Source: CAVYHJ01 sp963768165 [NCBI: uncultured bacterium] (lineage in GTDB: Bacteria > UBP4 > UBA4092). Taken from it: 64,000 nt of DNA. Location of the stretch: positions 434,001 through 498,000 of the forward strand of contig CAVYHJ010000003.1 in the NCBI GenBank assembly GCA_963768165.1. Direction: 5' to 3'. Numbering within the stretch: position 1 is the stretch's first letter; each line of letters begins with the position of its first letter. This document shows positions 13,046-34,709 of the stretch, in pieces. The translations under genes were made by a program, and so were the position numbers. The notes under the pieces are model-generated. The model saw only the letters and a list, made by a program, of their open reading frames with translations. It had not been told where the DNA came from and did no database searches.

Positions 13046-13849
13046 TTACTGTATCCCACAAAACAATTCATAATCAATCAATTGAGTAATAGTGGGATGG
13101 TCTCCACAAACCGGACACTTGGGATTACGAGGAATTTTGATGGTACGAAAATTCATCTTTAAGGCATTATAGGTCAAAAGCTTTCCCACTAACAGGTCTC
13201 CGATACTCAATAAATATTTGAGAACTTCGGTCGCTTGAATCACTCCCAGGGTTCCGGCGACTACACCCAAGATTCCCGCTTCCTGACAACTGGGAACCGC
13301 ACCGGGAGGAGGAGGTTCAGGAAATAGGCAACGGTAACAAGGACCTTTTTTGGGGATGATGGTGGTGGCTTGCCCATCGAATTTGAATATCCCGGCATGA
13401 GAGAGTGGTTTGTTTGCCATGACACAGGCATCGTTGACTAGATAGCGAGTGGGAAAATTATCACTGCCATCTATTACAATATCGTACTCTTTAATCACAT
13501 CGAGAATATTGGCGGAGGTCAGCCGTTCTTTATATTCAATAACATTTATATCACCATTCAGATTTTGTAATTTTTCTTTAGCGGAAGTAGTTTTCGCTCT
13601 GCCGATGTCTTTGGTGGAATGGAGAATTTGCCGTTGCAAATTACTCAGTTCTACATTATCAAAATCCACCAATCCTATTGTTCCAACACCTGCTGCTGCC
13701 AGATAAAACGCGCTGGGTGAACCCAATCCACCGGTTCCAACGACCAAGACTTTCCCCGCCAATAATTTTTTTTGGCCTTTTCCGCCGACTTCATTCAAAA
13801 GAATATGCCGGCTGTAACGTTGTAATTGTTGTTCGGTAAAGTTTGCCAT
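13046..13849 (-). CDS. moeB: MoeB/ThiF-type E1-like sulfur-carrier adenylyltransferase
   Basis: Adenylates the C-terminal glycine of a ubiquitin-like sulfur carrier as the first step of thiocarboxylate formation. In 267 residues one sees the ATP-binding loop GTGGLGS (38-44), DFDNVELSNLQRQ, Asp130 in DGSDNFPTRY, the zinc pairs Cys171/Cys174 and Cys245/Cys248, and Cys188 in PSCQEAG at the position of the E1-like cysteine. There is no C-terminal rhodanese domain, so sulfur must come from another protein; TusA and cysteine synthase genes are in the same cluster. It lies 65 bp downstream of the CysO-like carrier, its probable partner. Last gene of the minus-strand cluster. Confidence 0.9.
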   Translation of the reverse strand: MANFTEQQLQRYSRHILLNEVGGKGQKKLLAGKVLVVGTGGLGSPSAFYLAAAGVGTIGLVDFDNVELSNLQRQILHSTKDIGRAKTTSAKEKLQNLNGDINVIEYKERLTSANILDVIKEYDIVIDGSDNFPTRYLVNDACVMANKPLSHAGIFKFDGQATTIIPKKGPCYRCLFPEPPPPGAVPSCQEAGILGVVAGTLGVIQATEVLKYLLSIGDLLVGKLLTYNALKMNFRTIKIPRNPKCPVCGDHPTITQLIDYELFCGIQ

Positions 13850-13877
13850 AAGATTGTTTTATCTCGTGTAAAATAAA

Positions 13878-13905
13878 GAGATTCTTCGCTGCGCTCAGAA
13901 TGACA
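13878..13905. repeat. Half copy of the dispersed inverted repeat
   Basis: This matches one arm (GATTCTTCGCTGCGCTCAG onward) of the two full inverted repeats at 18956 and 32281. It sits between the CysO-like and moeB genes. Confidence 0.75.
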
Positions 13906-13914
13906 AAATGAAGA

Positions 13915-14190
13915 TTAACCCCCCGCAATTGCAGGTATGATAGAGACTTCATCGCCATCATTTACTTTGGTTTTTTCACCTTCCAAGAATCGAATATCCT
14001 CTTCGTTGACATAGATGTTCACGAACCGGCGCAATTTGCCATTCTCATCGCAGACCCGTTCCTTGATTCCGGGATATTGCCCGTTCAAATTATTAATTAA
14101 TTCATCTACAGTTGCACCTGACGATTCCACTTCTGTTTGATTATTGGTTAATTTCTGTAACGGTGTAGGTATACGTACTTTTACCGGCAT
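13915..14190 (-). CDS. CysO/MoaD-like sulfur carrier protein
   Basis: Ubiquitin-like sulfur carrier of 91 residues ending in IIPAIAGG, ready for adenylation without processing. The internal sequence [18 protein letters not shown] closely follows mycobacterial CysO, the donor for CysM-type cysteine synthesis. It lies 16 bp downstream of the threonine synthase-like gene and upstream of moeB, so it probably receives AMP from that enzyme and carries sulfur as a thiocarboxylate to a PLP enzyme of the cluster. A MoaD role in molybdopterin is less likely because no moaE or other moa gene is nearby. Confidence 0.88.
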
Positions 14191-14206
14191 GGTAATATTC
14201 CTTTCT

Positions 14207-15439
14207 TTAATGATGTAACTTTACGTTGGCTTCGAACGATTCCAGTGATGCTTTTATTTTATCCGGTTTTCCGACACTATCCATTATCGCTTCCTGTGTC
14301 TTCAACCCGTTTCCTGTAATGCAAATTACAATTGACTCGTTTTTCGGTATTCGCCCCTGCTCAATCAACTTTTTGGTAACACTTACTGTAACGCCTCCTG
14401 CCGTTTCCGTAAAAATCCCTTCAGTTCGTGCAAGCAATTTAATCCCTTCCCGAATTTCATCATCATTGGCTTCTTCTCCCCAACCTCCGCTTTGACGGAT
14501 GGTATCTAAAGCATAATACCCGTCTGCGGGATTGCCAATGGCGATGGATTTGGCAATGGTGTTGGGTTTCACGGGACGAATTACTTCCTGTTTATTTTTG
14601 ACGGCCGTGACAATCGGCGAACATCCCTGCGCCTGTGCCACATACATTTTGGTTGTGACCTTCTCAATTAATCCAATTTTCTTGAATTCATTGAGCCCTT
14701 TCCAGATTTTGGAAATTAACGAACCTCCTGCCGCGGGGACAATGATATGTTGCGGGGTACGCCAGCCGAATTGTTCGGCAATTTCATATCCATACGTTTT
14801 CGACCCTTCGGCATAAAATGGACGGATGTTGATATTCACAAACGCCCAATTGTATTTTGCGCCGATTTCACTGCACAACTTGTTGACATCGTCATAGTTT
14901 CCTTCTACCGATACAACTTTGGGCGCGTAGACGAGAGACCCGACCACTTTCCCCAATTCCAAATCAGCGGGTATAAAAACATACGCTTTTAAATCGCCTC
15001 TCGCCGCTAATGCTGAAACAGAATTTGCTAGATTACCGGTCGAAGCGCAGGCAATGGTATCGAATCCAAATTCAATGGCTTTGCTGGCGGCCACTGCGAC
15101 TACCCGGTCTTTAAACGAGAGAGTGGGATAATTGACCGCATCATTCTTAATGTAGAGTTCTTCGACACCCAGTTCTTGGGCTAAACGGCGGGCGCGAATG
15201 AAAGGCGTGAATCCAGTATTTAATCCGACTTTGGGTTCACCGTCAATCGGTAATAATTCCCGGTAACGCCAGATATTTGAAGGGCGGGCATGAATTTTTT
15301 CTCGCGTGATTTCTTGGGCAATCCGGTCATAGGCATAATCTACTTCCAGAGAACCAAAACAAAATTCGCAGACGTAAATAGGTTCTTTAGGATATTCCCG
15401 ACCACATTCTCTACATCGTAACCCTTTGACATAGGACAT
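14207..15439 (-). CDS. thrC: Threonine synthase-like PLP enzyme with zinc ribbon
   Basis: Fold-type II PLP enzyme, 410 residues. The N-terminus is a zinc ribbon (Cys9, Cys12, Cys24, Cys27) followed by the catalytic domain with the PLP lysine in TLSFKDR (Lys110), [13 protein letters not shown] for phosphate binding, and a late ITGNGLK loop. The best family match is threonine synthase acting on O-phosphohomoserine. Its tight linkage to a CysO-like carrier (16 bp) and moeB suggests a possible alternative: a carrier-dependent enzyme that puts sulfide on an activated homoserine. That is inference only. No other threonine pathway gene is in view. Confidence 0.85.
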
Positions 15440-15543
15440 AAACTCATTTACTCCATTCTATTTGGATTTTCAACTACTCTTCCGTCCTAAGGGAAAATGA
15501 GAAAACCATTACAAGACGGGAAAGTGTATGTTGAAGTTGATGG

Positions 15544-16473
15544 CTAATTTCGTTTATCGAAAAATTGTTCCATACTAAAATATCGTTCACCGCGGTCTGG
15601 GAATACAGTTACTACAGTCTTTCCTTTACCCAACCTTTTGGCGATTTCCACAGCGGCCACCGCGGCTGCTCCGGAAGAAATACCGACCAAGAGTCCTTCT
15701 TCCCTGGCCAATTTCTTGGTCATCTGAAACGCATCGTTATCTTTGACTTTATAAACTTCATCGATAGCATTTTTATTTAATACGGCAGGAATAAATCCGG
15801 CGCCGATTCCCTGGATTTTATGCGGCCCCGGTTTCCCACCGGATAATACCGCCGAGTTTGTTGGTTCTACGGCGATAATCTTTACATGCGGCAACCGTTG
15901 TTTTAGGATTTCACCCACTCCGGTCAAGGTTCCGCCTGTGCCAACACCTACCACAAAAGCATCCAGTTTTTCGCCCACTTCGTTCAATATTTCCAAAGCG
16001 GTGGTCTTCCGATGTATCTCCGGATTCGCTTCATTATTAAACTGTTGTGGCATAAACGCACCGGGTGTTTTGGCAATAATTTCTTCCGCTCTGGAAATAG
16101 CTCCCGCCATGCCTTCAACCCCTTTGGTTAACACAATTTCTGCGCCATATGCGGCTAAAATACCACGCCGTTCCAGACTCATGGTTTCCGGCATGGTCAA
16201 AATAAGTTTATACCCCTTGACCGCGCAAACCATTGCCAACCCAATTCCTGTATTTCCACTGGTGGGTTCGACAATCACTGATCCGGATCTGATGCTACCC
16301 TTATTTTCAGCATCTTCAATCATAGCCAGAGCAATGCGGTCTTTGACTGAACCACCGGGATTTTGGGATTCCAGTTTGGCTAAAACGCGTGCGGAATTAG
16401 GACTTCCAGTAATACGTTCCAGCTGGATTAATGGCGTCCTTCCAATAAGTTCCAGGACAGATGAAATAATCAA
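15544..16473 (-). CDS. cysK: Cysteine synthase, CysK/CysM type
   Basis: PLP-dependent beta-replacement enzyme making cysteine from an activated serine and a sulfur donor. The 309 residues hold the PLP lysine in PGGSVKDR (Lys44), [12 protein letters not shown] (69-80) and [12 protein letters not shown]. The start codon is TTG at 16471-16473, overlapping the TGA stop of the ThiS-like gene; GGGAGG at its 5' side belongs to the last glycine codons of that gene. Direct coupling to a sulfur carrier and a JAMM protease resembles the mycobacterial mec-cysO-cysM set, so the enzyme may take sulfur from a protein thiocarboxylate rather than free sulfide. Confidence 0.93.
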
Positions 16474-16682
16474 TTTATGCCGCCTCCCATGTAATATAGA
16501 AATTCAACCGTATCTTCGCTCGAAAGGATTATTTTATCATATTCTTCCTTTTGCAGGATAGTTCCGTTATGTTCTACCGTCACCAATTCCGGTTTGATTT
16601 TACGTTCTTCCAATAAATTTTTAATGGTTTTTCCTTCTGATATTTCTACAGATTCACCATTTAATGTAATTTTGATAGACAT
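16470..16682 (-). CDS. ThiS-like sulfur carrier with C-terminal extension after GlyGly
   Basis: Small ubiquitin-like protein of 70 residues with the ThiS pattern ([33 protein letters not shown]). It ends MGGGIN instead of GG: two extra residues block the C-terminal glycine. Carriers of this kind (QbsE, HcyS) are known to need trimming by a JAMM protease before adenylation, and a JAMM gene lies 12 bp upstream in the same unit. The last codons also form the ribosome site for cysK, whose start overlaps the stop codon. The partner E1 is probably the moeB product. A thiazole-synthesis role is unlikely without thiG or thiF nearby. Confidence 0.88.
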
Positions 16683-16694
16683 GATAACTTCTCG

Positions 16695-17096
16695 CTATTC
16701 GATAACAATCGGATATTCTTCTATTTTACCATCGATAATTCGAAATGCGTGGGCATCGGGATTCGTTCGGTCTTTTAATGAAACGATTATGTAATATGCT
16801 TCCGGGTAATACGCCAATCCCACATCGGTGATGGATGGATATGCTGGAGACTCCGGATGAGAATGAAAGATCGCAACCATATCCACACCTTTTTTTCGCA
16901 TATCCTTGATAGCCGCGAATTGCCCTTTGGGATTCATTAAATACCGTACTTTGGGTGTATCATCAATATTATCAATGAAATACGTATCCGTTACCATCCC
17001 ATCTTTTCCCCCCAGTATTCCGCACGCTTCATTGGGCAACCCCTTATTCAAATGAGCAATCACCTTTTCCCAGTCTTTTTTCTTTATTTTTACCAT
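16695..17096 (-). CDS. JAMM/MPN+ metalloprotease, Mec/HcyD-like
   Basis: Zinc metallopeptidase of 133 residues. The full JAMM set is visible: Glu23 in PNEACGIL, and HSHPESPAYPSITD with His78, His80, Ser88 and Asp91 at the correct spacing (HxHx7Sx2D). Relatives (Mec+, QbsD, HcyD) either clip extra residues from a sulfur carrier or release cysteine from a carrier adduct. Position directly before the GGGIN-ending carrier and cysteine synthase supports both jobs. No ribosome site stands out. A perfect hairpin at 17120 separates it from the ubiA-like gene. Confidence 0.92.
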   Translation of the reverse strand: MVKIKKKDWEKVIAHLNKGLPNEACGILGGKDGMVTDTYFIDNIDDTPKVRYLMNPKGQFAAIKDMRKKGVDMVAIFHSHPESPAYPSITDVGLAYYPEAYYIIVSLKDRTNPDAHAFRIIDGKIEEYPIVIE

Positions 17097-17166: not shown

Positions 17167-18102
17167 TCATACAATATAGGCTAATGCGAACCCAATCTGA
17201 GTTGCGAACATCATGCTATACATATGTGTCCAGGATATATGATTTTCGGTGGTTGCCAATTCTTCGGGTTTGCGGACCATGAGATAAATCACATACATTC
17301 CCCAGAGGGTCAATATCGTTCCAAGAATCCACAATGCCAGATGATTTCCGGTTAAGATTCCCAGATAAGCGCCTAACGGGATTAATAACCACGGGATAAT
17401 AAAGGACGGCGAAATCATCCATGCCGCCTTCTTTACTCCATAAATCACCGGCAAGGTCATACACCCGTATCTCCTGTCCCCTTCCATATCCGCGAAATCT
17501 TTGGTAGTTGTGGCACCCAATAAAAACAACCCGAATATCGCGCCGATATACCATGCCTCGGTTTTGAAAATAGTCATTCCCGCAGACCATCCAGCTATTT
17601 TCAGCAATGTCCCTCGTGGAATGGCAATCGTAATATTCGCCCATATTCCCAATCTCTTTGTCCGAAAGGGCGGAGCGGAATATATGTACGTGGACACCGC
17701 CGCGATAAACGCCAGCCAAAAACATTCGTGCCGTCCATCCGGTTGGACTTCCCACGCCAGCCATAACGAAACCAGATAGAGAATCCAGGCATAGATAGTC
17801 GCGGATTGAACGGAGATGACTCCCGTACATAAAGGTCGTTTGGGTTTGTTGATTTTATCCAAGGGCAAATCGGTAATTTGATTTAAGACATTGGATGCCG
17901 CGTTCAACATTGCCGCCATCAGAGAGCCAATGAGAATAAAATGCAAATCAGGGTACATGGAAAAGACTTCAGTAAACGCTTTTCCCACATGATGCGCCCG
18001 CGCACCCACCGCCGTTAGTCCCCCCGACACAAAACCCAACGCCGGTGCCACCAGCGTAAACGGTCTTACAAAATTCCAGTATAGTTTTAGCTTATTCGTC
18101 AT
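17167..18102 (-). CDS. UbiA-family prenyltransferase
   Basis: Integral membrane enzyme that joins a polyprenyl diphosphate to an acceptor. The 311 residues form about nine hydrophobic segments with both Asp-rich motifs: NQITDLPLDKINKPKRPL (N-x3-D-x3-D) near residue 73 and TKDFADMEGDRRYG near 200. The acceptor (quinone ring, chlorophyllide-like ring, glycerol phosphate or other) cannot be read from sequence; an extra loop around VQPDGRHECFW is unusual. It lies 19 bp downstream of the DUF92 gene and in the same unit as a polyprenol kinase-like gene, which suggests a salvage route supplying its isoprenoid diphosphate. Confidence 0.9.
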   Translation of the reverse strand: MTNKLKLYWNFVRPFTLVAPALGFVSGGLTAVGARAHHVGKAFTEVFSMYPDLHFILIGSLMAAMLNAASNVLNQITDLPLDKINKPKRPLCTGVISVQSATIYAWILYLVSLWLAWEVQPDGRHECFWLAFIAAVSTYIYSAPPFRTKRLGIWANITIAIPRGTLLKIAGWSAGMTIFKTEAWYIGAIFGLFLLGATTTKDFADMEGDRRYGCMTLPVIYGVKKAAWMISPSFIIPWLLIPLGAYLGILTGNHLALWILGTILTLWGMYVIYLMVRKPEELATTENHISWTHMYSMMFATQIGFALAYIV

Positions 18103-18121
18103 ACTTGACCAATTCTTATCT

Positions 18122-18961
18122 TTAATTTATAAAATTTACTCCTGCAAATATCCAATACAACAATGGGTAAAAAATAAAAAAGAAAAGAAAAGAAAAGATT
18201 CCTCCGAATAAAGTATTAAGAAAATTGGTAATAAATTTATTGATTTTGCCTTTTGATTCCAATAATGAGCCTAATATACTTTCAAGTAAATTTGACAAAA
18301 GAGCTCCAAGTATAACCGTTACTGAAAAATAAATTGCTATACTGCTATGTGAAATACTTATTGGATAATTGTTAATAAATAAAAAGAAACAGGTAAAATA
18401 AATCAAAGATATTAATAATGCACCTAATATTCCAGTCAAAGTACCGATATAAGAAATTGCCCCTTCTGTTCCTCGTGAGACTTCTCTTAATGGAATTATC
18501 GTGAAACATCTCTTACCATATAATTGTCCTAATTCACTCGATACAGTATCAAATGTTCCCGCTGCAAAACTTCCGACAAATGCTATGGTAGAGAAAAAGA
18601 TTAATCGTTTATCTTTAAATAACAAAATTAAGCATGCAAAAATCACCCCTGCCAAACATTTCGCCAATACATTAGAAATCCCCCTTTGCCCTTCATTCTT
18701 CTCCGCCAGACCCATTTCTTTTTTCTTTTGATACCCCCATTTGGTAGCGAGAGTGCCAATCAGAAAAAAGGAAAAGAGAATCACAAACCCCTGCCACCCC
18801 ATGAACGTATAAATCGGGATACCTACAATCAATCCACCCAGAATTCCTGATTTACTGACCGCTTTAGCGAAATAGGCAAGGACAGCAATAATCCCATTGA
18901 CAAGAAGGGCTTGAATGAAAAGGTTTATATCTAATGCAGTATTCATATGGTTTTTTGTCAT
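18122..18961 (-). CDS. DUF92 family membrane protein, VTE6-like
   Basis: Integral membrane protein of up to 279 residues with about seven hydrophobic segments. The DUF92 signature is clear: GSFAAGTFDTVSSELGQLYGK and a later SRGTEGAISYIGTLTG. The plant member VTE6 is a phytyl-phosphate kinase, so a polyprenyl-phosphate kinase role is likely but not proven. The first ATG (18961) lies inside the arm of a dispersed inverted repeat; Met6 at 18946 is an equally good start and would exclude the repeat. No Shine-Dalgarno sequence is visible for either. Next to a UbiA gene and near a VTE5-like kinase. Confidence 0.85.
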   Translation of the reverse strand: MTKNHMNTALDINLFIQALLVNGIIAVLAYFAKAVSKSGILGGLIVGIPIYTFMGWQGFVILFSFFLIGTLATKWGYQKKKEMGLAEKNEGQRGISNVLAKCLAGVIFACLILLFKDKRLIFFSTIAFVGSFAAGTFDTVSSELGQLYGKRCFTIIPLREVSRGTEGAISYIGTLTGILGALLISLIYFTCFFLFINNYPISISHSSIAIYFSVTVILGALLSNLLESILGSLLESKGKINKFITNFLNTLFGGIFSFLFFFIFYPLLYWIFAGVNFIN

Positions 18962-19052: not shown

Positions 19053-19301
19053 TTAACATTGTTTCTGCACAATGATTTCCCAATCCGTCTCATTGAGTTG
19101 TTGTTTCCGCAAAATTTTCTGACCGGCTTCTTCAAAAGACCGGGGAACATCCCGGATAGAAGTGACAGTATTGACCAGGATGCGTAATGTTTCACCAATT
19201 TCCATTTCTTCCAATGCTAATTTGGAACGGATATACGGATAGGGACAAAACTCATTCTTGACATCAATTTCCCGGTCAATCTTAATTTCCTGTTCAGCCA
19301 T
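19053..19301 (-). CDS. TusA/SirA-like sulfur relay protein
   Basis: Small cytoplasmic sulfurtransferase-fold protein, 82 residues. The TusA signature CPYP (Cys19) sits in the first helix, where the cysteine carries a persulfide. The body (SKLALEEMEIGETLRILVN, then a C-terminal strand) matches the family fold. AAGGA lies a few bases before the ATG. Located between ATP sulfurylase and the isoprenoid genes of the same minus-strand unit, it may pass sulfur to the carrier proteins downstream in place of a rhodanese. Confidence 0.92.
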   Translation of the reverse strand: MAEQEIKIDREIDVKNEFCPYPYIRSKLALEEMEIGETLRILVNTVTSIRDVPRSFEEAGQKILRKQQLNETDWEIIVQKQC

Positions 19302-19352: not shown

Positions 19353-21023
19353 TTATTTATATTGTTCATATGGCATGGGATTCCAGACCCGTTTCTTATA
19401 TTCTTCCGGTGTCACCAAACGTTCGAGATCAGCCAAAATCTGTTTGGCAATTTCCAATTCTCTCGTAGACTCTGCCTTATCCTGAAACATAAATTGGTCT
19501 GGCACATTCTCATCCGCATTCGTTGTCTTTTCTTCCAGCGCAGCGATAAGGTCTTTCTGCCGTGCAATTGCCGCTTCCAGTGCTTCTACCCGTTGACGTT
19601 CCGCCAAATCCCGCCGAATATCAAACAGGTACGCAATTTCTTTCACCACATCATCGTACACCTTGTCGGAATTCATGCGTGCATCCAATAATGCCACATC
19701 TAAATCATCCAATGTCAATTTCGCTGGATCTAATTTCTCACCGCGCGGATATCCGCCTAAGCGGTGATGGGTCAAATAAAATGGAAATAACCCCTTGACC
19801 GTATCTCCCGGAGGACGTGTCGCAACTCCCTTATCATCCGTGCCTTTCGGTTGAATCCCTTGAATAATAATCTGCGCTACTTCCGGTCGAATGACTTCTT
19901 TCGGCGGAATATATCCATACCGCAATATATCCTGAATCGCCGTTCCGCTCATGGTAATCTGATATTCTTCCCCGTGCGGACAGGTGTTTTCCGTGGCAAT
20001 TCCCGCGCAACGTGTACAATAAAACGAATCCTTGATAAATAATGGAGTAATCCCCAATTCTCCCGGTTCATAAGTGTCAAATATTTTCCATGCGTCATAT
20101 TTATCATAATATCCACCGAACCCGGCATGGTCTCGTCCCACGATAAAATGCGTGCATCCATAATTTCGCCGGATAATCGCATGCATAATAGCCTCGCGCG
20201 GTCCCGCATAGGACATAGTCACACGCAAAGGCGCCAACGCTACTTTATTTGCTGGATAATACGTTTTTAACGCAATCTCATACGCCTTGATACGATATTC
20301 ATTGCGGAAATAAGCTTTGCGAGTGGTCTCGACAATCGGATGAATGAATAACCCGTCCAGAATTTCCATTGCGCACTTCTGCAAATATTCATGCCCCCTA
20401 TGCAATGGATTTGCTGTCTGAAATCCCGCCACGGTCGTCCATTTCCGTTCTTCATAAAATAATTTCCACGTATCCACCGGGTCAAGACGATATTTCTGGA
20501 ATAATCCCCAATGCTGTTTCTCAATCAGTTCAATCGGCCCTGCTAAAATCACATCTCCCATCCGCCGATACACATAATCCACACCGGGATGTTTCCGCGC
20601 CGCCGTTCCGAATGTAAAGGTCGCTCGTTCTTCCCGACTATATCCATATTTCTCCGAGATGTGCATCAATGCCAGCGGTTTATTATCCTGCGCGTCTACC
20701 AATGCAATCGTTTCACCCGTCTTAATTTTGGAGATTATTTTCGCGTTCTCTTCTCCCGTCGGTGCCAGCGTAATTGGAATCGTCCACGGCAACCCGTTCG
20801 CCAACCGTTTGCAATGCAATACCGATTGATAATCCTTTTCTCCCATGAACCCTTCCAGTGGACTCAACGCGCCAATCGCGATCATTTCTACCATCGCCTG
20901 GATATCCTGGTCTATATAAATCTTGGGCAATTTCTCGGCATCTTTATATGCCTTATCCTTTTTGCTCGAATCTAATACTTTATTAATTAATTTCCCGCCC
21001 AGCGGAGTGTGTGCTTTGGACAT
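19353..21023 (-). CDS. sat: Sulfate adenylyltransferase (ATP sulfurylase) with C-terminal extension
   Basis: Forms adenylyl sulfate from ATP and sulfate, the first step of assimilation or dissimilation. The catalytic core runs to about residue 390 with FQTANPLHRGHEY (201-213), GRDHAGFGGYYDKYDA (296-311), a Cys336/Cys339/Cys348 zinc-type cluster and MSGTAIQDILRYGYIPP. The motif normally written QTRNP reads QTANP: the arginine that binds sulfate in the family is Ala204. About 165 residues follow the core, including a charged predicted coiled coil (about 455-525); this is not APS kinase. No aprAB, cysC or cysH gene is in the window. It may be an ordinary divergent Sat or one with altered substrate. 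Confidence 0.9.
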   Translation of the reverse strand: MSKAHTPLGGKLINKVLDSSKKDKAYKDAEKLPKIYIDQDIQAMVEMIAIGALSPLEGFMGEKDYQSVLHCKRLANGLPWTIPITLAPTGEENAKIISKIKTGETIALVDAQDNKPLALMHISEKYGYSREERATFTFGTAARKHPGVDYVYRRMGDVILAGPIELIEKQHWGLFQKYRLDPVDTWKLFYEERKWTTVAGFQTANPLHRGHEYLQKCAMEILDGLFIHPIVETTRKAYFRNEYRIKAYEIALKTYYPANKVALAPLRVTMSYAGPREAIMHAIIRRNYGCTHFIVGRDHAGFGGYYDKYDAWKIFDTYEPGELGITPLFIKDSFYCTRCAGIATENTCPHGEEYQITMSGTAIQDILRYGYIPPKEVIRPEVAQIIIQGIQPKGTDDKGVATRPPGDTVKGLFPFYLTHHRLGGYPRGEKLDPAKLTLDDLDVALLDARMNSDKVYDDVVKEIAYLFDIRRDLAERQRVEALEAAIARQKDLIAALEEKTTNADENVPDQFMFQDKAESTRELEIAKQILADLERLVTPEEYKKRVWNPMPYEQYK

Positions 21024-23394: not shown

Positions 23395-25476
23395 CTATTG
23401 ACACATTTGTGTTGAATTGGGCTTTTTTATTCTTTCTACCCAATCAAAAATTACATCTACTTTATCTGATAAATTTTTAGAGTTTTTACGCTTTTTTATT
23501 TCATTTTGAAGTAATGATTTACATGTATCTTCACTAATAGGTAAGGCAATTATTCTTTGTGCAAAGCAATAATAATAGTTGTCTTTAGCATTTAGAAATC
23601 CGTTTTTAACAGACTCGGTTCCTGAAAGCCACCAATTAGTGGTGCTAGAAGAAGTAATTGGATGCCACCACCAAGTGGAGCTATTAGAAGCAGTTGGACC
23701 TTCAGTTTTATCAAAATTGTCGGGTCTTACAGACAAACCCTGATCAAATGTACTACTGGAATCTATAGAATCTATAAAAAATGGCACAAATTTCTGAATA
23801 TATTCTTTTTCGCTGATTGATTTAGGTAATCCTTGAATGGTTCCATTATAAAGTATGTCTATTGAGGATGTATTAGTACCAAATTTCGTTAAACGATCTA
23901 TTTTCACATTCCGCAAATCACAGAGTTCGAGATTGGTATCTTCAAAGTTTGCACCTTGCAAGTTTGCATAAGAAAGGGTTGCTCCTTTTAAGTCAGTATG
24001 AGTTAAAATTGCGCCTTGCAAATTAGAACTACATAGGTCTACTCCTTGTAATTGAGCATAGGGCAGCTTTGCGTCTTGCAAGTTAGTACTATTTAGGTCT
24101 ACGCCTTGCAATTGAGCACAAGATAGGTATGTCCCTTGCAATTGAGCATCAGAAAGATTTGCAAAGTTCAATTGAGCCGAATCCAAGTTCACACCTTGCA
24201 ATTCAGCATTACCCAACCTTGTGCCTACTAATAGAGCAGATATGAGTTTTGCTCCTTGTAAATGAGCATAACTCAAATCTGCACCTTGCAATTGAGATCC
24301 CATAAGTTTTGCGTTTTCTAAATGAGCTCCCGTTAGGTTAACACCTTGTAATTTGGCATTTACCAAGGTTGCGCCTGTCAATTGTGCATCAGACAAGCTT
24401 GCTCCTTGAAAGTCAGTATGAACCCCGTTTACGCCTTGTAACTTGGATGATGAATCAAAGCTTGCTCCTTCTAATTCTGTATAATCAAGATGTGCACCTT
24501 CTAAATTTGCTCCACGGAGATCTGCATTATAAAGTCGTGAGTGACTAAAATCAGCGTAGCATAGGTTACGGATAGAGAGAGGAAGGCCTATTGTATGATC
24601 ACGCCACGCCTCTTCTTCTGATTTTCCTTGTTGAATGTAAAATGCAACTACTTCAGGTAATGGAGGTGTTTTTACCAACGTTTCGTCTTTCAGAATTAGA
24701 TTACGAGGAAGTATATGATATGTTATACCAAGTGTATCTAATAATTTATTAGGTACAATTAATACAAGAAAACTTGCGATAGGAAGTAACAGGCAGACCA
24801 TCCCAATTCTAGACCGTTTTACTGACCACATTAAAGGTTCAAAGAAATATTGCATTGAGATTGTTTTATCGTCAATCATTGGGCATTCTTTGATTTGTTT
24901 CCAAATCAAGAGTAATAAAAATGAATCTATTACCACCGCGACAAAATTGCAGGAAGTAATTCTAGTAATTCCTATACTGTGATAAGGTAAAAACCATATT
25001 TGAGTTAAAAGTAATAATACCGGTGGTATCACTACAATAGATACCCAAAGTAATATTTGAACCAAACGACGAATTATTGGTGACTTTTCCCTTTGAATAG
25101 TTATTGGACTAATGATAACGAATGGATACAGAAGCATCCATTCCTTATCCTTTTCCTTCTCGTTAACAGTGTCATTGAAATAATGCAGTTTTCGTGACAA
25201 GAACAAAACCTGTAACAGCATATATATATGAAATACGATAAAAGCGAATGGAATCACAACATAAAAGCCTTCAAGCGGTAATGGGGCATTCAATAGAGGT
25301 AATGGCAAACTACTTTCCCGCAACAACTGTTCGTCCGTGGTCGAAAAGACAGTGATAGCAATATAAATCATCAATAACAAAAAATTGATATAGAGATTAC
25401 TGACGTATTTTGCCGCATCATTGATGGAAGACCGTATCGTTTCCCGTTCCTGTAATTCTAAATCCTTTTCAGACAT
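23395..25476 (-). CDS. Membrane-anchored pentapeptide-repeat protein
   Basis: Protein of about 693 residues of unknown function. The N-terminal 280 residues hold about five or six hydrophobic segments split by a charged loop (NEKEKDKEW). A long run of pentapeptide repeats of the A(D/N)LxG type follows (from NLCYADFSHS to NLELCDLRNV), about 200 residues forming a right-handed quadrilateral helix; LQGV and LQGA recur. The last 160 residues are non-repetitive, with Trp-rich WWWHP and TNWWLSG. ATG at 25476 is chosen; a TTG 45 bp upstream is in frame but has no ribosome site. It is more AT-rich than its neighbours and stands alone, as transferred genes often do. Confidence 0.85.
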   Translation of the reverse strand: MSEKDLELQERETIRSSINDAAKYVSNLYINFLLLMIYIAITVFSTTDEQLLRESSLPLPLLNAPLPLEGFYVVIPFAFIVFHIYMLLQVLFLSRKLHYFNDTVNEKEKDKEWMLLYPFVIISPITIQREKSPIIRRLVQILLWVSIVVIPPVLLLLTQIWFLPYHSIGITRITSCNFVAVVIDSFLLLLIWKQIKECPMIDDKTISMQYFFEPLMWSVKRSRIGMVCLLLPIASFLVLIVPNKLLDTLGITYHILPRNLILKDETLVKTPPLPEVVAFYIQQGKSEEEAWRDHTIGLPLSIRNLCYADFSHSRLYNADLRGANLEGAHLDYTELEGASFDSSSKLQGVNGVHTDFQGASLSDAQLTGATLVNAKLQGVNLTGAHLENAKLMGSQLQGADLSYAHLQGAKLISALLVGTRLGNAELQGVNLDSAQLNFANLSDAQLQGTYLSCAQLQGVDLNSTNLQDAKLPYAQLQGVDLCSSNLQGAILTHTDLKGATLSYANLQGANFEDTNLELCDLRNVKIDRLTKFGTNTSSIDILYNGTIQGLPKSISEKEYIQKFVPFFIDSIDSSSTFDQGLSVRPDNFDKTEGPTASNSSTWWWHPITSSSTTNWWLSGTESVKNGFLNAKDNYYYCFAQRIIALPISEDTCKSLLQNEIKKRKNSKNLSDKVDVIFDWVERIKKPNSTQMCQ

Positions 25477-25748
25477 CCTTAGGTATCCGTTCTTTTTAAG
25501 AATGAAGGGAAGATAGCACAATTATTTTCATATTGTCAATGAATGTACTTCCTGCCTGCTTGACATAACCACTAGTCTTTTGCTACCATACTTGACAAGT
25601 AGTTAGTATACGTGTCTCTACCGCCTGCTCGATATGGAACGTAAAAAATCCCAGCCGAGAGTTACTTGGGTAGAGTTTTTGTTTTGCAAAAAATGCAGGT
25701 CAATGGAAAATGTTGACCTGTCTTTTATTGTCCGGGTGTGAACCGAGC
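25477..25748. other. Leader region before tRNA-Thr/tuf
   Basis: No convincing gene. It contains TTGACA at 25592-25597 without a clear -10 partner, and CCCAG...TTGGG followed by a T-rich run near 25650-25685. A perfect 8-bp hairpin (CAGGTCAA/TTGACCTG, 25696-25720) is followed by TCTTTTATT, resembling a terminator or attenuator upstream of the tRNA-tuf unit. Confidence 0.4.
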
Positions 25749-30329: not shown

Positions 30330-32264
30330 ATGGGACTTGGCGTTGCGAAAAAAATCATTAAGGAACATCTGCTTTCCGGTGAAATGACGGCGGGAAAAGA
30401 AATTGGGATTAAGGTGGATCAGACCCTGACGCAGGACGCGACCGGGACCATGGCCTATCTTCAATTTGAAGCGATGGGAATTCCTAAAGTAAAAACTAAA
30501 TTATCTGTTAGTTACGTTGACCATAATATGCTGCAAACCGGATTTGAAAATGCTGATGACCATCAATTTTTGCAGAGTATCGCCGCAAAATACGGGATAT
30601 ATTTTTCGCGTCCCGGAAATGGAATTTGTCACCAGGTTCATTTGGAACGGTTCGGGATTCCCGGACAGACGCTCTTAGGTTCAGACAGTCACACGCCGAC
30701 CGATGGCGGGATTGGCGCGCTGGCGATTGGAGTCGGCGGACTAGATATCGCCATAGCGATGGGCGGAGGCCCGTTTTATACCATTATGCCGAAAATTGTG
30801 AAGGTGGAACTCAAAGGAAAATTGCAACCCTGGGTGACGGCGAAAGATATTATTTTGGAAATGTTACGGAGATTGACGGTCAAAGGCGGAGTCGGACGAA
30901 TTTTCGAGTATGGTGGAGAAGGTGTCAAATCATTGACCGTGCCGGAACGCGGGACGATTACCAATATGGGCGCGGAATTGGGTGCGACAACTTCGATTTT
31001 CCCCAGCGATGAACAGACTAAAAAATATATGAAAGCACAAAAGCGTGAGAAAGATTGGATTGCGTTGGAAGCCGATAAAGACGCGGAATATGATGAACTC
31101 ATTGAGATTGATTTGAATAAGCTGGAACCGCTGATAGCCCAACCGCACAGTCCTGACAAGGTTGTGCCGGTGCGCCAAGTGGAAGGGATAAAAGTTCAGC
31201 AAGTGGCGGTCGGTAGTTGCACGAATTCTTCGATTATGGATTTAATGCGTGTGGCTTCAGTGTTGCATGGCAGACATGTCCATCCCGATGTGAGTATGGT
31301 AGTGACGCCCGGTTCAAAACAAGTCTTTGAAATGGTGGCTCGTAACGGGGCATTAGTAGATTATATTCATTCTGGTGTAAGAATATTGGAGTCTGCATGC
31401 GGTCCATGTATCGGTATGGGACAGGCACCGCCATCCAAAGGGGTTTCAATTCGGTCGTTTAACAGGAATTTTGAAGGACGTGCTGGAACGCAGGATGCCT
31501 ATGTCTATCTGACGAGTCCGGAAACCTGTGTTGCCAGCGCGGTGAATGGTGTAATCACCGACCCGCGGAAATTGGGCGAATATGTTCCGCAAAGTATTCC
31601 CGATGAATTTTTAGTAGACGATTCCTTGATTCTTCCTCCCTCAAAAACTCCAGAAAAAGTGGAGGTGATTCGGGGTCCGAATATCAAAGCACTACCCATC
31701 AATTCACCCTTGGCGGATACGATTGAAAAAGAAGTGTTAATCAAAGTGGGAGACAATATTACCACCGACCATATCATGCCGGCGGGAGCGAAAGTTTTGC
31801 CGTTACGTTCCAATATTCCTGCAATTTCTGAATTTGTGTACGTGCGAGTGGATGCTGATTTTCCGAAACGCGCCAAAGAAAAAGGTGGCGGATTTATTGT
31901 TGGCGGTGATAATTACGGACAAGGGTCGAGTCGGGAACATGCCGCGCTTGCGCCGATGTTTCTAGGCGTGAAAGGCGTCATCGTGAAATCCTTCGCGAGA
32001 ATCCACCGGGCGAATTTGGTGAATTTTGGATTGTTGCCATTAATTTTCGTGAACCCTTCGGATTATGACAAAATCTCACTGGGTGATAAATTGAAATTAG
32101 AAAATCTGCGTGAGACGATTAAAAACAGCAAGTCGGTCAAAATCAAAAATGTCACCAAGAATATTGAATTTACAGTAAAACATGATATGACGCCGAGAGA
32201 AGTTGACATTATGTTAGCAGGCGGTCTGTTGAATTTTACCAAAGAACATGCACAGAAGAACTAA
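30330..32264 (+). CDS. Aconitate hydratase
   Basis: Interconverts citrate and isocitrate with a [4Fe-4S] cluster in the TCA cycle. 644 residues is the length of the shorter bacterial aconitase group, distinct from AcnA (about 890) and AcnB (about 860). Motifs in order: GSDSHTPTDGGIGALAIGVGG, GSCTNSS with the first cluster cysteine, SACGPCIGMGQ with the other two, and the swivel-domain GGDNYGQGSSREHAALAP. AAGGAGC precedes the ATG. It heads a same-strand series with isocitrate dehydrogenase and sucCD. A homoaconitase or isopropylmalate isomerase role is unlikely because the domains are fused. Confidence 0.95.
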   Translation: MGLGVAKKIIKEHLLSGEMTAGKEIGIKVDQTLTQDATGTMAYLQFEAMGIPKVKTKLSVSYVDHNMLQTGFENADDHQFLQSIAAKYGIYFSRPGNGICHQVHLERFGIPGQTLLGSDSHTPTDGGIGALAIGVGGLDIAIAMGGGPFYTIMPKIVKVELKGKLQPWVTAKDIILEMLRRLTVKGGVGRIFEYGGEGVKSLTVPERGTITNMGAELGATTSIFPSDEQTKKYMKAQKREKDWIALEADKDAEYDELIEIDLNKLEPLIAQPHSPDKVVPVRQVEGIKVQQVAVGSCTNSSIMDLMRVASVLHGRHVHPDVSMVVTPGSKQVFEMVARNGALVDYIHSGVRILESACGPCIGMGQAPPSKGVSIRSFNRNFEGRAGTQDAYVYLTSPETCVASAVNGVITDPRKLGEYVPQSIPDEFLVDDSLILPPSKTPEKVEVIRGPNIKALPINSPLADTIEKEVLIKVGDNITTDHIMPAGAKVLPLRSNIPAISEFVYVRVDADFPKRAKEKGGGFIVGGDNYGQGSSREHAALAPMFLGVKGVIVKSFARIHRANLVNFGLLPLIFVNPSDYDKISLGDKLKLENLRETIKNSKSVKIKNVTKNIEFTVKHDMTPREVDIMLAGGLLNFTKEHAQKN

Positions 32265-32280
32265 AATAAGTCAAAAGTTC

Positions 32281-32369
32281 TGTCATTCTGAGCAAAGCGA
32301 AGAATCCCTGTGTTCTACCTGATATAAAATGGCTTTATGCAGAGATTCTTCGCTTTGCTCAGAATGACA
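32281..32369. repeat. Dispersed inverted repeat, copy 2
   Basis: Arms at 32281-32306 and 32344-32369 are exact 26-bp complements around a 37-bp centre with TGTTCTACCTGAT. It is homologous to 18956-19044. Where copy 1 has GAGCGCAGC/GCTGCGCTC this copy has GAGCAAAGC/GCTTTGCTC, so pairing is kept. Confidence 0.9.
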
Positions 32370-32423
32370 ATTATTGTTTAATGAGATATTATTCTAAAGT
32401 AAAAATTTCAGGAGGAGAAAATC

Positions 32424-33497
32424 GTGGCATACAAAATAACGTTAATTCCCGGAGACGGCACCGGACCGGAATTGGCTGATGCGACACGTCGAGTGATTGA
32501 CGCAACGGGAGTGAAAATAGATTGGGAAGTCATGGAAGCAGGCGCGGATGTGATGGAGAAATACGGGACACCGTTGCCTCAACCGGTGCTCGATAGTATC
32601 AAGAAAAATAAAGTCGCATTAAAGGGTCCTATCACCACGCCAATAGGCACGGGATTTAGGAGCGTGAATGTGGCGCTGAGGCAGGAATTACAGCTTTACG
32701 CCTGTGTACGTCCGTGTAAATCCTATGTGGGAGTGCGGTCACGGTATGAAAAAGTAGATTTGGTTATTGTCCGCGAGAATACGGAAGATTTATATGCCGG
32801 GATTGAGTATGATGTCGGCTCCGATGAACAGAAATATCTCATGGGATTGAGCAAAGGGAAAATTAAAGTGGACAGTGCCGTCAGCCTTAAACCGATTTCC
32901 GAAAGCGGGTCACGGCGCATTGCGAAATATGCCTTTGATTATGCCGTAAACAATGGCAGAAAAAAAGTATCCGCAGTCGCCAAAGCGAACATTATGAAAT
33001 TCACCGATGGACTATTTTTTAAAGTCGCGCGGGAAGTCGCCAGGGAATATCAGGGCGAAGTCGCGTTTGAAGAAATCCTGGTGGACAACATGTGCATGCA
33101 GCTGGTACAAAAACCGGAGATTTATGATGTGATGGTGATGCCGAATTTATACGGTGATATTTTATCTGATTTATGTGCCGGATTGGTTGGGGGGCTGGGA
33201 GTTGCGCCGGGAGCCAATATTGGATTGGAAGGCGCGGTATTTGAACCTACGCATGGTTCCGCACCGAAATATAAAGGAATGAACAAGGTGAACCCGACCG
33301 CCATGATTTTATCGGGGGTCTTGATGTTACATCACTTGAAAGAAAAAGATGCCGCCAAGCGGTTGGAAAAAGCAACGGCGGATGTTATTGCGGAAGGAAA
33401 AGATGTGACTTTTGATATGAAAACCGATAGGAATGATCCAACGGCCGTAGGAACCAAAGAAATGGCGGATGCCATTATCGCGAAATTGAAAAAATAA
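32424..33497 (+). CDS. Isocitrate dehydrogenase, NAD-type (IDH/IPMDH family)
   Basis: Oxidative decarboxylation of isocitrate to 2-oxoglutarate. 357 residues; start GTG at 32424 with GGAGGAG about 7 bp upstream. The N-terminal loop [13 protein letters not shown], substrate-binding [32 protein letters not shown] and the metal site [19 protein letters not shown] fit the short NAD-dependent IDH branch rather than long NADP-type Icd. The Ser-Val-Asn of SVNVALR is the isocitrate signature; isopropylmalate dehydrogenases differ here. Its place after aconitase and before sucCD supports the assignment. Cofactor choice is inferred. Confidence 0.9.
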
Positions 33498-33502
33498 AAT
33501 AT

Positions 33503-33552
33503 ACCACCCCCAGCCCCCTCCTTAATTAAGGAGGGGGATTCAAGGGGGTGGT
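33503..33552. repeat. Nested GC-rich palindrome between isocitrate dehydrogenase and sucC
   Basis: Outer arms ACCACCCCC (33503-33511) and GGGGGTGGT (33544-33552) surround a perfect 24-bp palindrome (33514-33537) centred on TTAATTAA. It occupies nearly the whole spacer. It could terminate or attenuate transcription, or be a mobile palindromic repeat. Confidence 0.85.
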
Positions 33553-33563
33553 CGAGGGAACTT

Positions 33564-34709
33564 ATGAAAATACATGAATATCAGGGAAAAATAATTTTAG
33601 GTAAATATGAAATTCCCATTCCTCTGGGTGAAGTAGCCTCTACGCCGGAGAAAGCGAAAGAAATTGCCGCGCGAATTGGGAAAAAAGTGGTTGTGAAAGC
33701 GCAGGTGCATGTCGGCGGACGGGGGAAAGCGGGCGGTGTAAAGTTGGCGAATACACCTGAGGAAGCGGAAAGTGCCGCGTCACAAATTTTGGGTATGAAT
33801 ATCAAAGGACTGACAGTTCAAAAAGTATTGGTCGAGGAAGCCGCGGAAATTGACAAGGAATATTATATCGGGATCGTGGTTGATCGGGAGTCGCAAACCA
33901 ATACCATTATGGTCAGCGCGATGGGTGGCGTGGATATTGAAGAAGTCGCGGCGAAACATCCAAGAAAGATTGCGAAAATTCCGGTGAGTCCTGCCATTGG
34001 CTTGCGCGATTACCAGATTCGGGAAGCGTGTTACAAAGCGGGATTGGATAGAAAAGTTATTGGAGAAGTCGCGAAATTCTTGAAGAAATTATATACGGCG
34101 TATGTTTCCTCGGATGCCAATTTGGCGGAAATTAATCCCTTGGTTGTGACGAAATCAGGGACAGTGATTGCGACAGACGCTAAATTTAATATTGATGACA
34201 ATGCCTTAGACCGGCATCCTGAATTCAATGACTGGAAGGAAGAATCGGAAGAAGACCCAATTGAAGCGGAAGCGCACCGGCGGGGTTTGCAATATGTACG
34301 GCTGGGCGGCGATGTCGGGATTATCGGGAATGGCGCGGGATTAGTCATGGGCACGCTCGATGAAGTCAAACGCGCGGGCGGGAATCCGGCGAACTTTTTG
34401 GACATCGGCGGAGGCGCGAAAGCGGAAGTCGTCAAGAATTCTCTTGAACTCGTGTTAAGTGATCCCCATGTGAAAGGTGTTTTATTTAATGTATTCGGTG
34501 GAATCACGCGGTGCGATGAAGTCGCCAAAGGAATTTTAAGCGTGACGCAAACCATGGAATTGAAAGTTCCGATTGTTGTCCGGTTGACGGGAACGAGGGA
34601 AGAAGAAGGACGAGCGCTGTTACAAGGTTCGAGCTTGACGCCTGCGGAAACTATGCAATCCGCGGCAAAAACTATTGTGGAGAAAATCAATGTCAATTCT
34701 ACTAAATAA
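33564..34709 (+). CDS. sucC: Succinyl-CoA synthetase beta subunit
   Basis: With SucD interconverts succinyl-CoA and succinate with nucleotide formation. 381 residues: ATP-grasp domain with [29 protein letters not shown] and [13 protein letters not shown], then the CoA-ligase domain with [22 protein letters not shown] and [11 protein letters not shown]. The sucD start lies 20 bp inside the end of this gene, so translation is coupled. No clear ribosome site beyond GAGGG precedes the ATG. Confidence 0.98.

What the first reader, a model, noticed from the sequence alone, without database searches (positions are those of the whole stretch)
13046..17096. Two ubiquitin-like sulfur carriers, one E1, a JAMM protease and two PLP enzymes in one unit
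Seen: minus-strand order JAMM, ThiS-like carrier, cysK, thrC-like, CysO-like carrier, moeB, tightly packed. Known: Mec/CysO/CysM in mycobacteria and HcyD/HcyS in Wolinella make cysteine or homocysteine from protein thiocarboxylates. Inference: here two parallel branches (ThiS-like to CysK, CysO-like to ThrC-like) may share one E1. A two-carrier system feeding two amino-acid enzymes would be unusual.
Basis: partly seen in the sequence, partly recalled or inferred. Interest (0 to 1): 0.62.

Follow-up and report, generated by a model that had tools for sequence, protein, structure and literature searches.

The report
Two-carrier cysteine and homocysteine gene cluster
The cluster looks like two parallel protein-carried sulfur lines, one to cysteine and one to homocysteine (the precursor of methionine), each pairing a small ubiquitin-like sulfur carrier with its own enzyme; many little-studied bacteria appear to depend on the second line for methionine.

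Summary
Observation confirmed: JAMM, ThiS-like, cysK, thrC-like, CysO-like and moeB lie on the minus strand at 17096-13046, with tusA and ATP sulfurylase upstream. The arrangement is conserved: ThrC-like directly precedes a CysO-like carrier in 100 of 102 Nitrospirota loci (two run into a contig end) and in 24 of 27 Omnitrophota loci; 56 of the 102 also carry ThiS-CysK, 55 of them with two E1 genes. ThrC-like is not the ordinary threonine synthase: it has its own clade, a changed active-site cluster, and a second ThrC in nearly every genome. Across 234 genomes of two phyla it complements the known homocysteine routes (PF01053, DUF39): 230 have at least one of the three, 103 only ThrC-like. JAMM largely tracks ThrC-like and is rare in DUF39-only genomes. 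No MetX or MetA was found in ThrC-like Nitrospirota. Best reading: ThrC-like makes homocysteine from O-phosphohomoserine and CysO thiocarboxylate; CysK makes cysteine with ThiS-like. The enzyme kind is published: MetM/MetO of Streptomyces (Hasebe 2024, known here through a citing paper). The two-branch operon with JAMM, NIL, TusA and fusions was not seen in my paper searches. Nothing is shown biochemically.

The parts
16695..17096 (-). JAMM metalloprotease (Mec/HcyD type), predicted to trim carrier tails and to release the amino acid from the carrier
   Evidence: PF14464 79 bits; JAMM motif residues present by eye; closest solved relative 2kks, 100 bits
16470..16682 (-). ThiS-like sulfur carrier, C-terminal ...YYMGGGIN, probably a precursor that needs trimming
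   Evidence: PF02597 42 bits, TIGR01683 67.6 bits; overlaps cysK by 4 bases; fused to CysK in relatives
15544..16473 (-). CysK-type cysteine synthase (TTG start)
   Evidence: TIGR01139 454 bits over cut-off 351; the cysM model scores 296, under its cut-off of 394
14207..15439 (-). ThrC-like PLP enzyme with four conserved N-terminal cysteines; candidate MetM-type homocysteine synthase
   Evidence: PF00291 and TIGR00260; separate clade from canonical ThrC; changed active-site positions; genome partition
13915..14190 (-). CysO/MetO-like sulfur carrier ending ...IPAIAGG
   Evidence: PF02597 74 bits; 3dwg_C 82.7 bits; 53% identical to the carrier of the Nonomuraea pair
13046..13849 (-). E1-like adenylyltransferase (MoeB/ThiF family) without rhodanese domain
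   Evidence: PF00899 290 bits; 61% mean identity to the CysK-side E1 and 58% to the CysO-side E1 of Nitrospirota
19053..19301 (-). TusA sulfurtransferase, predicted sulfur donor to the activated carriers
   Evidence: PF01206 64 bits; TusA is adjacent to or fused with sulfite reductase beside ThrC-like in some relatives
19353..21023 (-). ATP sulfurylase, sulfate activation
   Evidence: PF01747 272 bits, PRK04149 463 bits
17167..18102 (-). UbiA-family prenyltransferase lying between TusA and JAMM; link to the sulfur genes unknown
   Evidence: PF01040 128 bits; no homologue found in the first 80 related loci
18122..18961 (-). DUF92 membrane protein lying between TusA and JAMM; link unknown
   Evidence: PF01940 171 bits; no homologue found in the first 80 related loci

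Best explanation
The cluster is a protein-thiocarboxylate sulfur assimilation unit with two outputs. Sulfur reaches TusA (in some relatives TusA is next to or fused with sulfite reductase). The E1 adenylates the C-terminal glycine of both small carriers, and TusA supplies the sulfur, giving ThiS-COSH and CysO-COSH. CysK joins ThiS-COSH to an activated serine, giving cysteine. The ThrC-like enzyme, a MetM-type homocysteine synthase, joins CysO-COSH to O-phosphohomoserine, giving homocysteine for methionine. JAMM trims carrier precursors (tails or fusions behind the GG) and releases the amino acid from the carrier. Shown: the genes, their order, their conservation, fusions, the active-site changes, and the complementarity of ThrC-like with other homocysteine routes. 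Inferred: substrates, sulfur flow, which carrier serves which enzyme, and the JAMM step.
For: (1) Complementarity. In 118 Nitrospirota genomes 81 have ThrC-like alone, 12 PF01053 alone, 3 DUF39 alone, 21 ThrC-like plus PF01053, 1 none; in 116 Omnitrophota 22, 53 and 31 alone, 7 with two routes, 3 none; Fisher p 2e-8 and 6e-16 for ThrC-like against the other two. (2) JAMM is in 100 of 102 (E 1e-4) and 24 of 27 (50 bits) ThrC-like genomes, in 0 of 3 and 1 of 31 DUF39-only genomes. (3) No MetA in 118 Nitrospirota, MetX only in 2 without ThrC-like, leaving O-phosphohomoserine as the likely activated homoserine. (4) Context in 102 loci: CysO next 100, NIL 100, canonical ThrC 39, proposed homoserine kinase 37, aspartate kinase 28, homoserine dehydrogenase 10, MetK and AhcY 4 (names of MetK and AhcY checked in L149); DUF39 shares the locus in L003 and L125. 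(5) Fusions ThiS-CysK, CysO-E1, CysO-NIL, SiR-TusA. (6) 109 of 109 ThrC-like rows differ from 40 of 40 canonical ThrC rows at the positions of Thermus T88, S155, N157, R160, N188, while the PLP lysine is kept. (7) The Nonomuraea homologue, 51% identical, has a SAM riboswitch directly upstream and a CysO-like gene behind it.
Against: 21 of 102 ThrC-like Nitrospirota also have PF01053, and 4 of 27 ThrC-like Omnitrophota also have DUF39. Three ThrC-like Omnitrophota show no CysO behind the enzyme: G136 and G222 with 4-5 kb of sequence to look in, G172 with 1.5 kb. G092 and G096 and G127, G146 and G172 carry ThrC-like without a JAMM match. The proposed homoserine kinase is unproven: the phosphoglycerate mutase model scores higher, and a Bacteroides member failed to rescue an E. 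coli thrB strain (passages of PMC7311316). A Microcystis ThrC that its authors call a MetM homologue, beside a sulfur-carrier gene, had threonine synthase and threonine deaminase activity and no clear methionine role in vivo (passages of PMC12172450). A ThrC 40% identical on a Natrinema plasmid has no carrier annotated within 5 kb. The changed residues could equally mean that O-phosphohomoserine is not the substrate. ThiG follows the cluster in L125 with no ThiS or ThiF of its own in between, so the ThiS-like carrier may serve thiamine. No whole genome is held for the window, so its PF01053, DUF39 and ThrC content outside 64 kb is unknown. The window has no NIL gene found and no riboswitch at the gathering score.
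Confidence: 0.72

Rival explanations
1. ThrC-like is a second threonine synthase and CysO only regulates it or travels with it; homocysteine comes from an unknown enzyme.
For: It scores above the general thrC cut-off (TIGR00260) and its predicted fold is closest to threonine synthases. A Microcystis MetM homologue made threonine in vitro (passages of PMC12172450).
Against: A further ThrC-family match is listed for 101 of 102 Nitrospirota and 25 of 27 Omnitrophota genomes with ThrC-like; a canonical ThrC lies within 8 kb in 39 of 102 loci. Five active-site positions differ without exception. The genome partition would be a coincidence.
Confidence: 0.1
2. The carriers serve other acceptors (thiazole of thiamine, molybdopterin, tRNA, or protein modification), and both PLP enzymes use free sulfide.
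For: ThiE, ThiG and a ThiH-like gene follow the cluster in L125 behind a TPP riboswitch, and L128 has a TPP riboswitch beside a frame that looks like ThiG by eye. NCBIfam matches the JAMM best to desampylase (below cut-off) and the CysO to SAMP1.
Against: No thi or moa gene was named among the window proteins scanned. CysO follows ThrC-like in 100 of 102 loci and ThiS is fused to CysK in 14 loci.
Confidence: 0.15
3. The ThrC-like enzyme makes homocysteine, but from homoserine, aspartate semialdehyde or an acyl-homoserine rather than O-phosphohomoserine.
For: Residues that bind the substrate phosphate in Thermus threonine synthase (roles recalled) are replaced. DUF39, whose route bypasses homoserine (PMC5764234, passages), lies near the cluster in L003 and L125.
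Against: MetA 0 of 118 and MetX 2 of 118, both without ThrC-like. A proposed homoserine kinase (unproven) is near in 37 of 102 loci. The related MetM is reported to use O-phosphohomoserine (second hand).
Confidence: 0.12

Closest known systems
MetM/MetO of Streptomyces (Hasebe et al. 2024, Appl Environ Microbiol 90:e01247-24; not held, known here through passages of PMC12172450)
   Same: ThrC-related homocysteine synthase acting on O-phosphohomoserine with a sulfur-carrier gene metO. The Nonomuraea pair with a SAM riboswitch, 51% and 53% identical to the window proteins, links the two.
   Different: The window and relatives add JAMM, E1 and TusA, and mostly a NIL protein, to the neighbourhood, plus a second carrier with CysK; no SAM riboswitch reached the gathering score in the window or in the 16 related loci searched.
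CysO/CysM/Mec of Mycobacterium (recalled; CysO structure 3dwg)
   Same: CysO-like carrier, JAMM protease, PLP cysteine synthase.
   Different: Here CysO is paired with a ThrC-like enzyme, and a ThiS-like carrier is paired with a CysK-type, not CysM-type, enzyme.
HcyS/HcyD/HcyF/MetY of Wolinella (Krishnamoorthy and Begley 2011; not held, seen as reference 34 of PMC5764234, details recalled)
   Same: Thiocarboxylate-dependent homocysteine synthesis with E1 and JAMM.
   Different: There the PLP enzyme is MetY (PF01053, recalled); here it is a ThrC-type enzyme, and PF01053 is absent from 107 of 129 genomes with ThrC-like.
Operon classes of Iyer et al. 2006 (PMC1779556, passages read)
   Same: ThiS/MoaD, JAMM, E1 and cysteine synthase (class 4c); E1 without rhodanese together with SirA/TusA and ATP sulfurylase (4e); [quoted passage not shown] ThiS beside cysteine synthase in Chlorobium.
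   Different: No threonine synthase is named in that text (0 occurrences), and no pairing of two carriers with two amino-acid enzymes appears in the passages read.

Membership tests
MetM/MetO homocysteine synthase system | ThrC-family enzyme related to MetM | tested here: inconclusive
   MetM sequence not in hand; 51% identity to a Nonomuraea homologue with a SAM riboswitch directly upstream
MetM/MetO homocysteine synthase system | sulfur-carrier gene next to the enzyme gene | tested here: met
   CysO-like gene 16 bases behind ThrC-like; 100 of 102 Nitrospirota and 24 of 27 Omnitrophota loci
MetM/MetO homocysteine synthase system | SAM riboswitch upstream, as reported for S. albulus | tested here: not met
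   None in the window; a regulatory trait that the Microcystis homologue also lacks
MetM/MetO homocysteine synthase system | O-phosphohomoserine to homocysteine activity | not testable with these tools
   Indirect only: genome partition and lack of acyltransferases
CysO/CysM/Mec | CysO-type carrier ending in GG | tested here: met
CysO/CysM/Mec | CysM-type PLP enzyme paired with CysO | tested here: not met
   CysO neighbours ThrC-like; the cysteine synthase is CysK type
CysO/CysM/Mec | JAMM protease with complete metal motif | tested here: met
   motif by eye in the translation
HcyS/HcyD/MetY (Wolinella type) | PF01053 MetY in the cluster | tested here: not met
   none among the window proteins scanned (with Pfam; with NCBIfam); seven mostly antisense frames of 150 residues or more were not scanned
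Threonine synthase (canonical) | PLP lysine and S-T-G-N cofactor loop | tested here: met
   K110, S133, T134, N136
Threonine synthase (canonical) | T88, S155, R160, N188 (Thermus numbering; role in O-phosphohomoserine binding recalled) | tested here: not met
   L, N, Y and S/G in 109 of 109 ThrC-like rows against T, S, R, N in 40 of 40 canonical rows
ThiS of thiamine synthesis | ThiG/ThiF neighbourhood | tested here: not met
   no thi gene among the window proteins scanned; but ThiE, ThiG and a ThiH-like gene follow the cluster in L125

The most novel reading that the evidence does not exclude
These bacteria run a closed, protein-bound sulfur economy: sulfite reductase hands sulfur to TusA, two dedicated ubiquitin-like carriers (each with its own E1 in many Nitrospirota) deliver it only to their own enzyme for cysteine or homocysteine (and in some lineages thiazole), carriers are made as fusions or tailed precursors freed by one JAMM protease, and the NIL protein is a methionine-sensing subunit that controls the homocysteine branch. 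Free sulfide would not be an intermediate.
Probability: 0.3. Interest if true: 0.75.

Novelty: new variant of a known kind. Interest (0 to 1): 0.56.

Why it matters
Price et al. 2018 (PMC5764234, passages) wrote that at least one more homocysteine pathway remained to be found. The ThrC-like/CysO pair, apparently a relative of the published MetM/MetO, is the only one of three homocysteine routes found in 103 of 234 genomes of two phyla sampled here. The operon shows how protease, E1, carriers and sulfur source could fit together, gives a residue signature that separates the enzyme from threonine synthase (the name its best models give it), and offers two carrier-enzyme pairs in one organism for testing how sulfur carriers choose their acceptors.

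Tried and rejected
Ideas dropped. ThrC-like as the only threonine synthase was rejected because a further ThrC-family match is listed for nearly every genome. O-acetyl- or O-succinylhomoserine as substrate in Nitrospirota is unlikely after the MetX and MetA searches. A wholly unpublished enzyme type was my view until passages of PMC12172450 cited MetM/MetO. SAM riboswitches were sought in the window and 16 related loci and not found at the gathering score; two TPP riboswitches and the window's two tRNAs were the only matches. Viral contigs gave nothing for JAMM. Promoter and terminator scans found about as many sites as shuffles. Placing the window in a phylum failed: the ThrC-like tree leaves it in an unresolved fork, nearest rows by path Omnitrophota.

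Limits of the counts. The 80 first loci are the best 80 of 331 fetched by ThrC-like similarity, so adjacency counts there are conditional. The cut-offs (A1 model 570 bits for ThrC-like, PF01053 E 1e-25, JAMM 50 bits in Omnitrophota against E 1e-4 in Nitrospirota) were chosen after seeing the score lists. Below the JAMM cut-off, matches of 26-28 bits in DUF39-only genomes G185, G208 and G216 and in several PF01053 genomes were left out; weak Nitrospirota matches (G029, G111, G115) were counted as present in the 113 of 118. G019 (fragment, 246 bits) and G032 (partial, 573 bits) were counted as ThrC-like; fragments in G135 and G148 were not, and counting them changes little. Completeness of at least 90 was requested but no completeness values were shown. 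The centre genomes G001 and G003 were picked because they carry ThrC-like. Related genomes are not independent, so Fisher p values overstate certainty. Some of the 109 ThrC-like rows are the same gene fetched twice. In one search, Sat, DUF39 and SiR could not be scored in the 102 loci because no seed hit was found there, so their zeros mean little.
Full report
WHAT IS THERE. The window carries, on the minus strand, ATP sulfurylase (21023-19353), TusA (19301-19053), DUF92 (18961-18122), UbiA (18102-17167), JAMM (17096-16695), ThiS-like (16682-16470), CysK (16473-15544), ThrC-like (15439-14207), CysO-like (14190-13915) and E1 (13849-13046). Gaps inside the six-gene part are 12, -4, 104, 16 and 65 bases. 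The E1 has no rhodanese domain; Iyer et al. 2006 noted that such E1 genes in sulfur operons always come with SirA, the TusA family (PMC1779556, passages), and TusA is indeed present. The ThiS-like carrier ends MGGGIN, so its GG is not terminal; the CysO-like carrier ends exactly in GG.

CONSERVATION. One scan with ThrC-like gave 331 related stretches; the best 80, at 63-72% identity, are mainly Omnitrophota and Nitrospirota. A CysO domain follows ThrC-like in 75 of these 80; the other five (L022, L024, L058, L067, L079) end within about 500 bases of the ThrC-like gene. The six window genes recur, with varying gaps, in Omnitrophota L002 and L126 and in Nitrospirota L017, L018 and L025, and in part in L022, where the contig is cut; the position of TusA varies. 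I then fetched the surroundings of all 102 ThrC-like-positive genomes of a 118-genome Nitrospirota sample. Within 8 kb on the same strand: CysO 100 of 102 (the exceptions L154 and L179 run into a contig end), NIL domain 100, JAMM 68, CysK 61, ThiS 57, at least one E1 71, two E1 55, canonical ThrC 39, proposed homoserine kinase 37, aspartate kinase 28, TusA 14, homoserine dehydrogenase 10, MetK and AhcY 4. The commonest order, 43 loci and 4 more behind MetK-AhcY, is ThiS, CysK, E1, ThrC-like, CysO, NIL, E1, JAMM. Fifty-six of 102 hold ThiS, CysK and CysO together, and in all 56 ThiS is directly before or fused to CysK. The two E1 genes are distinct paralogues, one on each side of ThrC-like in all 55, 57% identical to each other and 75% within a class. 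In Omnitrophota 24 of 27 ThrC-like loci have CysO behind the enzyme; G136 and G222 have none in 4-5 kb and G172 none in 1.5 kb, even with a lax search.

FUSIONS. ThiS and CysK are one open frame in L001, L003, L004, L005, L123, L124, L125, L128, L131 and in L208, L223, L234, L237, L238. CysO and E1 are one frame in L001 and L003; CysO and NIL in L004, L010, L036, L057 and L152; NIL and E1 in L215; sulfite reductase and TusA in L001, L003, L099 (a stretch of L128) and L102 (a stretch of L131). In the fusions whose junction was printed in full, the GG behind the carrier domain is kept. Of 100 CysO matches, 22 ended in GG, 61 had a tail of at most 12 residues and 17 a longer tail or fusion; all 11 ThiS matches had MGGG plus a tail. 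This fits proteolytic maturation by JAMM (inference; the same is recalled for HcyS/HcyD of Wolinella).

THRC-LIKE IS NOT THE THREONINE SYNTHASE. A further ThrC-family match is listed for 101 of 102 Nitrospirota and 25 of 27 Omnitrophota genomes with ThrC-like. In a tree of 65 ThrC-like and 11 canonical ThrC rows the two are separated with support 100/100. Of 109 ThrC-like rows (some the same gene fetched twice) all have L137, N204, R206, Y209 and S or G at 238, where all 40 canonical ThrC rows have the residues of Thermus T88, S155, N157, R160 and N188; the PLP lysine and the S-T-G-N loop are kept by both (Thermus numbers from the alignment; the phosphate-binding role of these residues is recalled). 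Twelve further ThrC-like genes from Nitrospirota genomes have the same signature. AlphaFold gives a threonine-synthase fold (mean pLDDT 79; best Foldseek hit 2zsj, E 9.5e-29, but rmsd 11.7).

THE GENOME PARTITION. I asked which route to homocysteine each genome has: ThrC-like (model A1), PF01053 (MetB, MetY, MetZ and relatives) or PF01837 (DUF39, the route described in Price et al. 2018, PMC5764234, passages). In 118 Nitrospirota: ThrC-like alone 81, PF01053 alone 12, DUF39 alone 3, ThrC-like plus PF01053 21, none 1. In 116 Omnitrophota: 22, 53 and 31 alone, ThrC-like plus DUF39 4, ThrC-like plus PF01053 1, PF01053 plus DUF39 2, none 3 (counted). So 230 of 234 genomes have at least one, and ThrC-like is scarce where another route exists (Fisher p 2e-8 and 6e-16, relatedness not corrected). 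JAMM is in 100 of 102 ThrC-like Nitrospirota, within 5 kb of ThrC-like in 68, and in none of the 3 DUF39 genomes, but also in 13 of 16 without ThrC-like (10 of 16 if weak matches are left out); in Omnitrophota, at 50 bits or more, it is in 24 of 27 ThrC-like genomes and 15 of 89 others, including 1 of 31 DUF39-only and 12 of 53 PF01053-only genomes. In 9 of these 12 the JAMM match starts 1-2.5 kb from a PF01053 match, which looks like the Wolinella MetY type. B12-dependent methionine synthase (PF02965) is in 46 of 118 Nitrospirota, 38 of them with ThrC-like as the only route; other methionine synthases were not searched. MetX was found in 2 of 118 (neither with ThrC-like) and MetA in 0 of 118, so O-phosphohomoserine is the likely substrate in Nitrospirota; acyltransferases were not searched in Omnitrophota.

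PRIOR ART. Passages of PMC12172450 say that Hasebe et al. 2024 found a homocysteine synthase, MetM, in Streptomyces that converts O-phosphohomoserine to homocysteine, and mention a carrier gene metO and a SAM riboswitch upstream of metM. That paper is not held. In my data a Nonomuraea locus (L121) has a SAM riboswitch (68.7 bits) directly upstream of a ThrC-like/CysO pair that is 51% and 53% identical to the window proteins. I therefore file the ThrC-like/CysO pair as the MetM/MetO kind. The same passages report that a Microcystis homologue made threonine and showed no clear methionine role in vivo, which counts against simple transfer of function. In the rows shown by my ten paper searches I saw no title or abstract that describes the two-carrier operon, its JAMM, NIL and E1 genes, or this partition; most subscription papers are not in the library.

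MECHANISM. Shown by sequence: gene set, order, fusions, residue changes, co-occurrence. Inferred: TusA gives sulfur to adenylated carriers; CysO-COSH plus O-phosphohomoserine on ThrC-like gives homocysteine; ThiS-COSH on CysK gives cysteine; JAMM trims and releases. Sulfite reductase as the source is supported by SiR-TusA fusions or adjacency beside ThrC-like in some loci. The NIL protein (PF09383), not found in the window, may sense methionine (inference from NIL in methionine transporters, recalled). In L125 the cluster is flanked by tetrapyrrole-type genes (named from recalled sequence resemblance) and by ThiE, ThiG and a ThiH-like radical-SAM gene behind a TPP riboswitch, so the ThiS-like carrier may also serve thiamine there.

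VERDICT. Its reach, the only one of the three routes found in 103 of 234 genomes sampled, is the most consequential point.

Noticed in passing
L125 11411-14148 and L128 1338-3541: A TPP riboswitch lies beside the sulfur-carrier cluster; in L125 ThiE, ThiG and a ThiH-like gene follow with no ThiS or ThiF of their own in between, suggesting a shared carrier and E1 (the L128 genes were judged by eye).
   Followed up: partly
L003 12493-13698 and L125 18218-19423: DUF39 (HcyBio) lies in the same locus as the ThrC-like/CysO cluster, placing two homocysteine routes side by side.
   Followed up: partly
Nitrospirota genomes with PF01053 only (12, e.g. G017, G026, G035): Ten of the twelve have no MetX or MetA match, so the substrate of their PF01053 enzyme is unclear.
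   Followed up: no
Omnitrophota genomes G161, G166, G183, G200, G203, G221, G224, G227, G240: A JAMM match starts 1-2.5 kb from a 344-364-bit PF01053 match, resembling the Wolinella HcyD/MetY arrangement.
   Followed up: partly
G029 (Nitrospirota); G129 and G198 (Omnitrophota): No ThrC-like, PF01053 or DUF39 found; G029 still has B12-dependent methionine synthase.
   Followed up: no
G136 (L136), G222 (L138), G172 (L116): ThrC-like genes without a CysO gene behind them, unlike the other Omnitrophota loci.
   Followed up: partly
window 17167-18961: A UbiA-family prenyltransferase (best model chlorophyll synthase ChlG, well below cut-off) and a DUF92 membrane protein sit together between TusA and JAMM.
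   Followed up: no
window 23395-25521: A 708-residue pentapeptide-repeat protein on the minus strand, with a tRNA-Thr gene and EF-Tu beyond it on the plus strand.
   Followed up: no
window 30330-35565: Aconitase, isocitrate/isopropylmalate dehydrogenase and both succinyl-CoA ligase type subunits in one row on the plus strand.
   Followed up: no
L149, L150, L239, L240: S-adenosylmethionine synthetase and adenosylhomocysteinase genes precede the two-branch operon (names checked in L149 only).
   Followed up: partly
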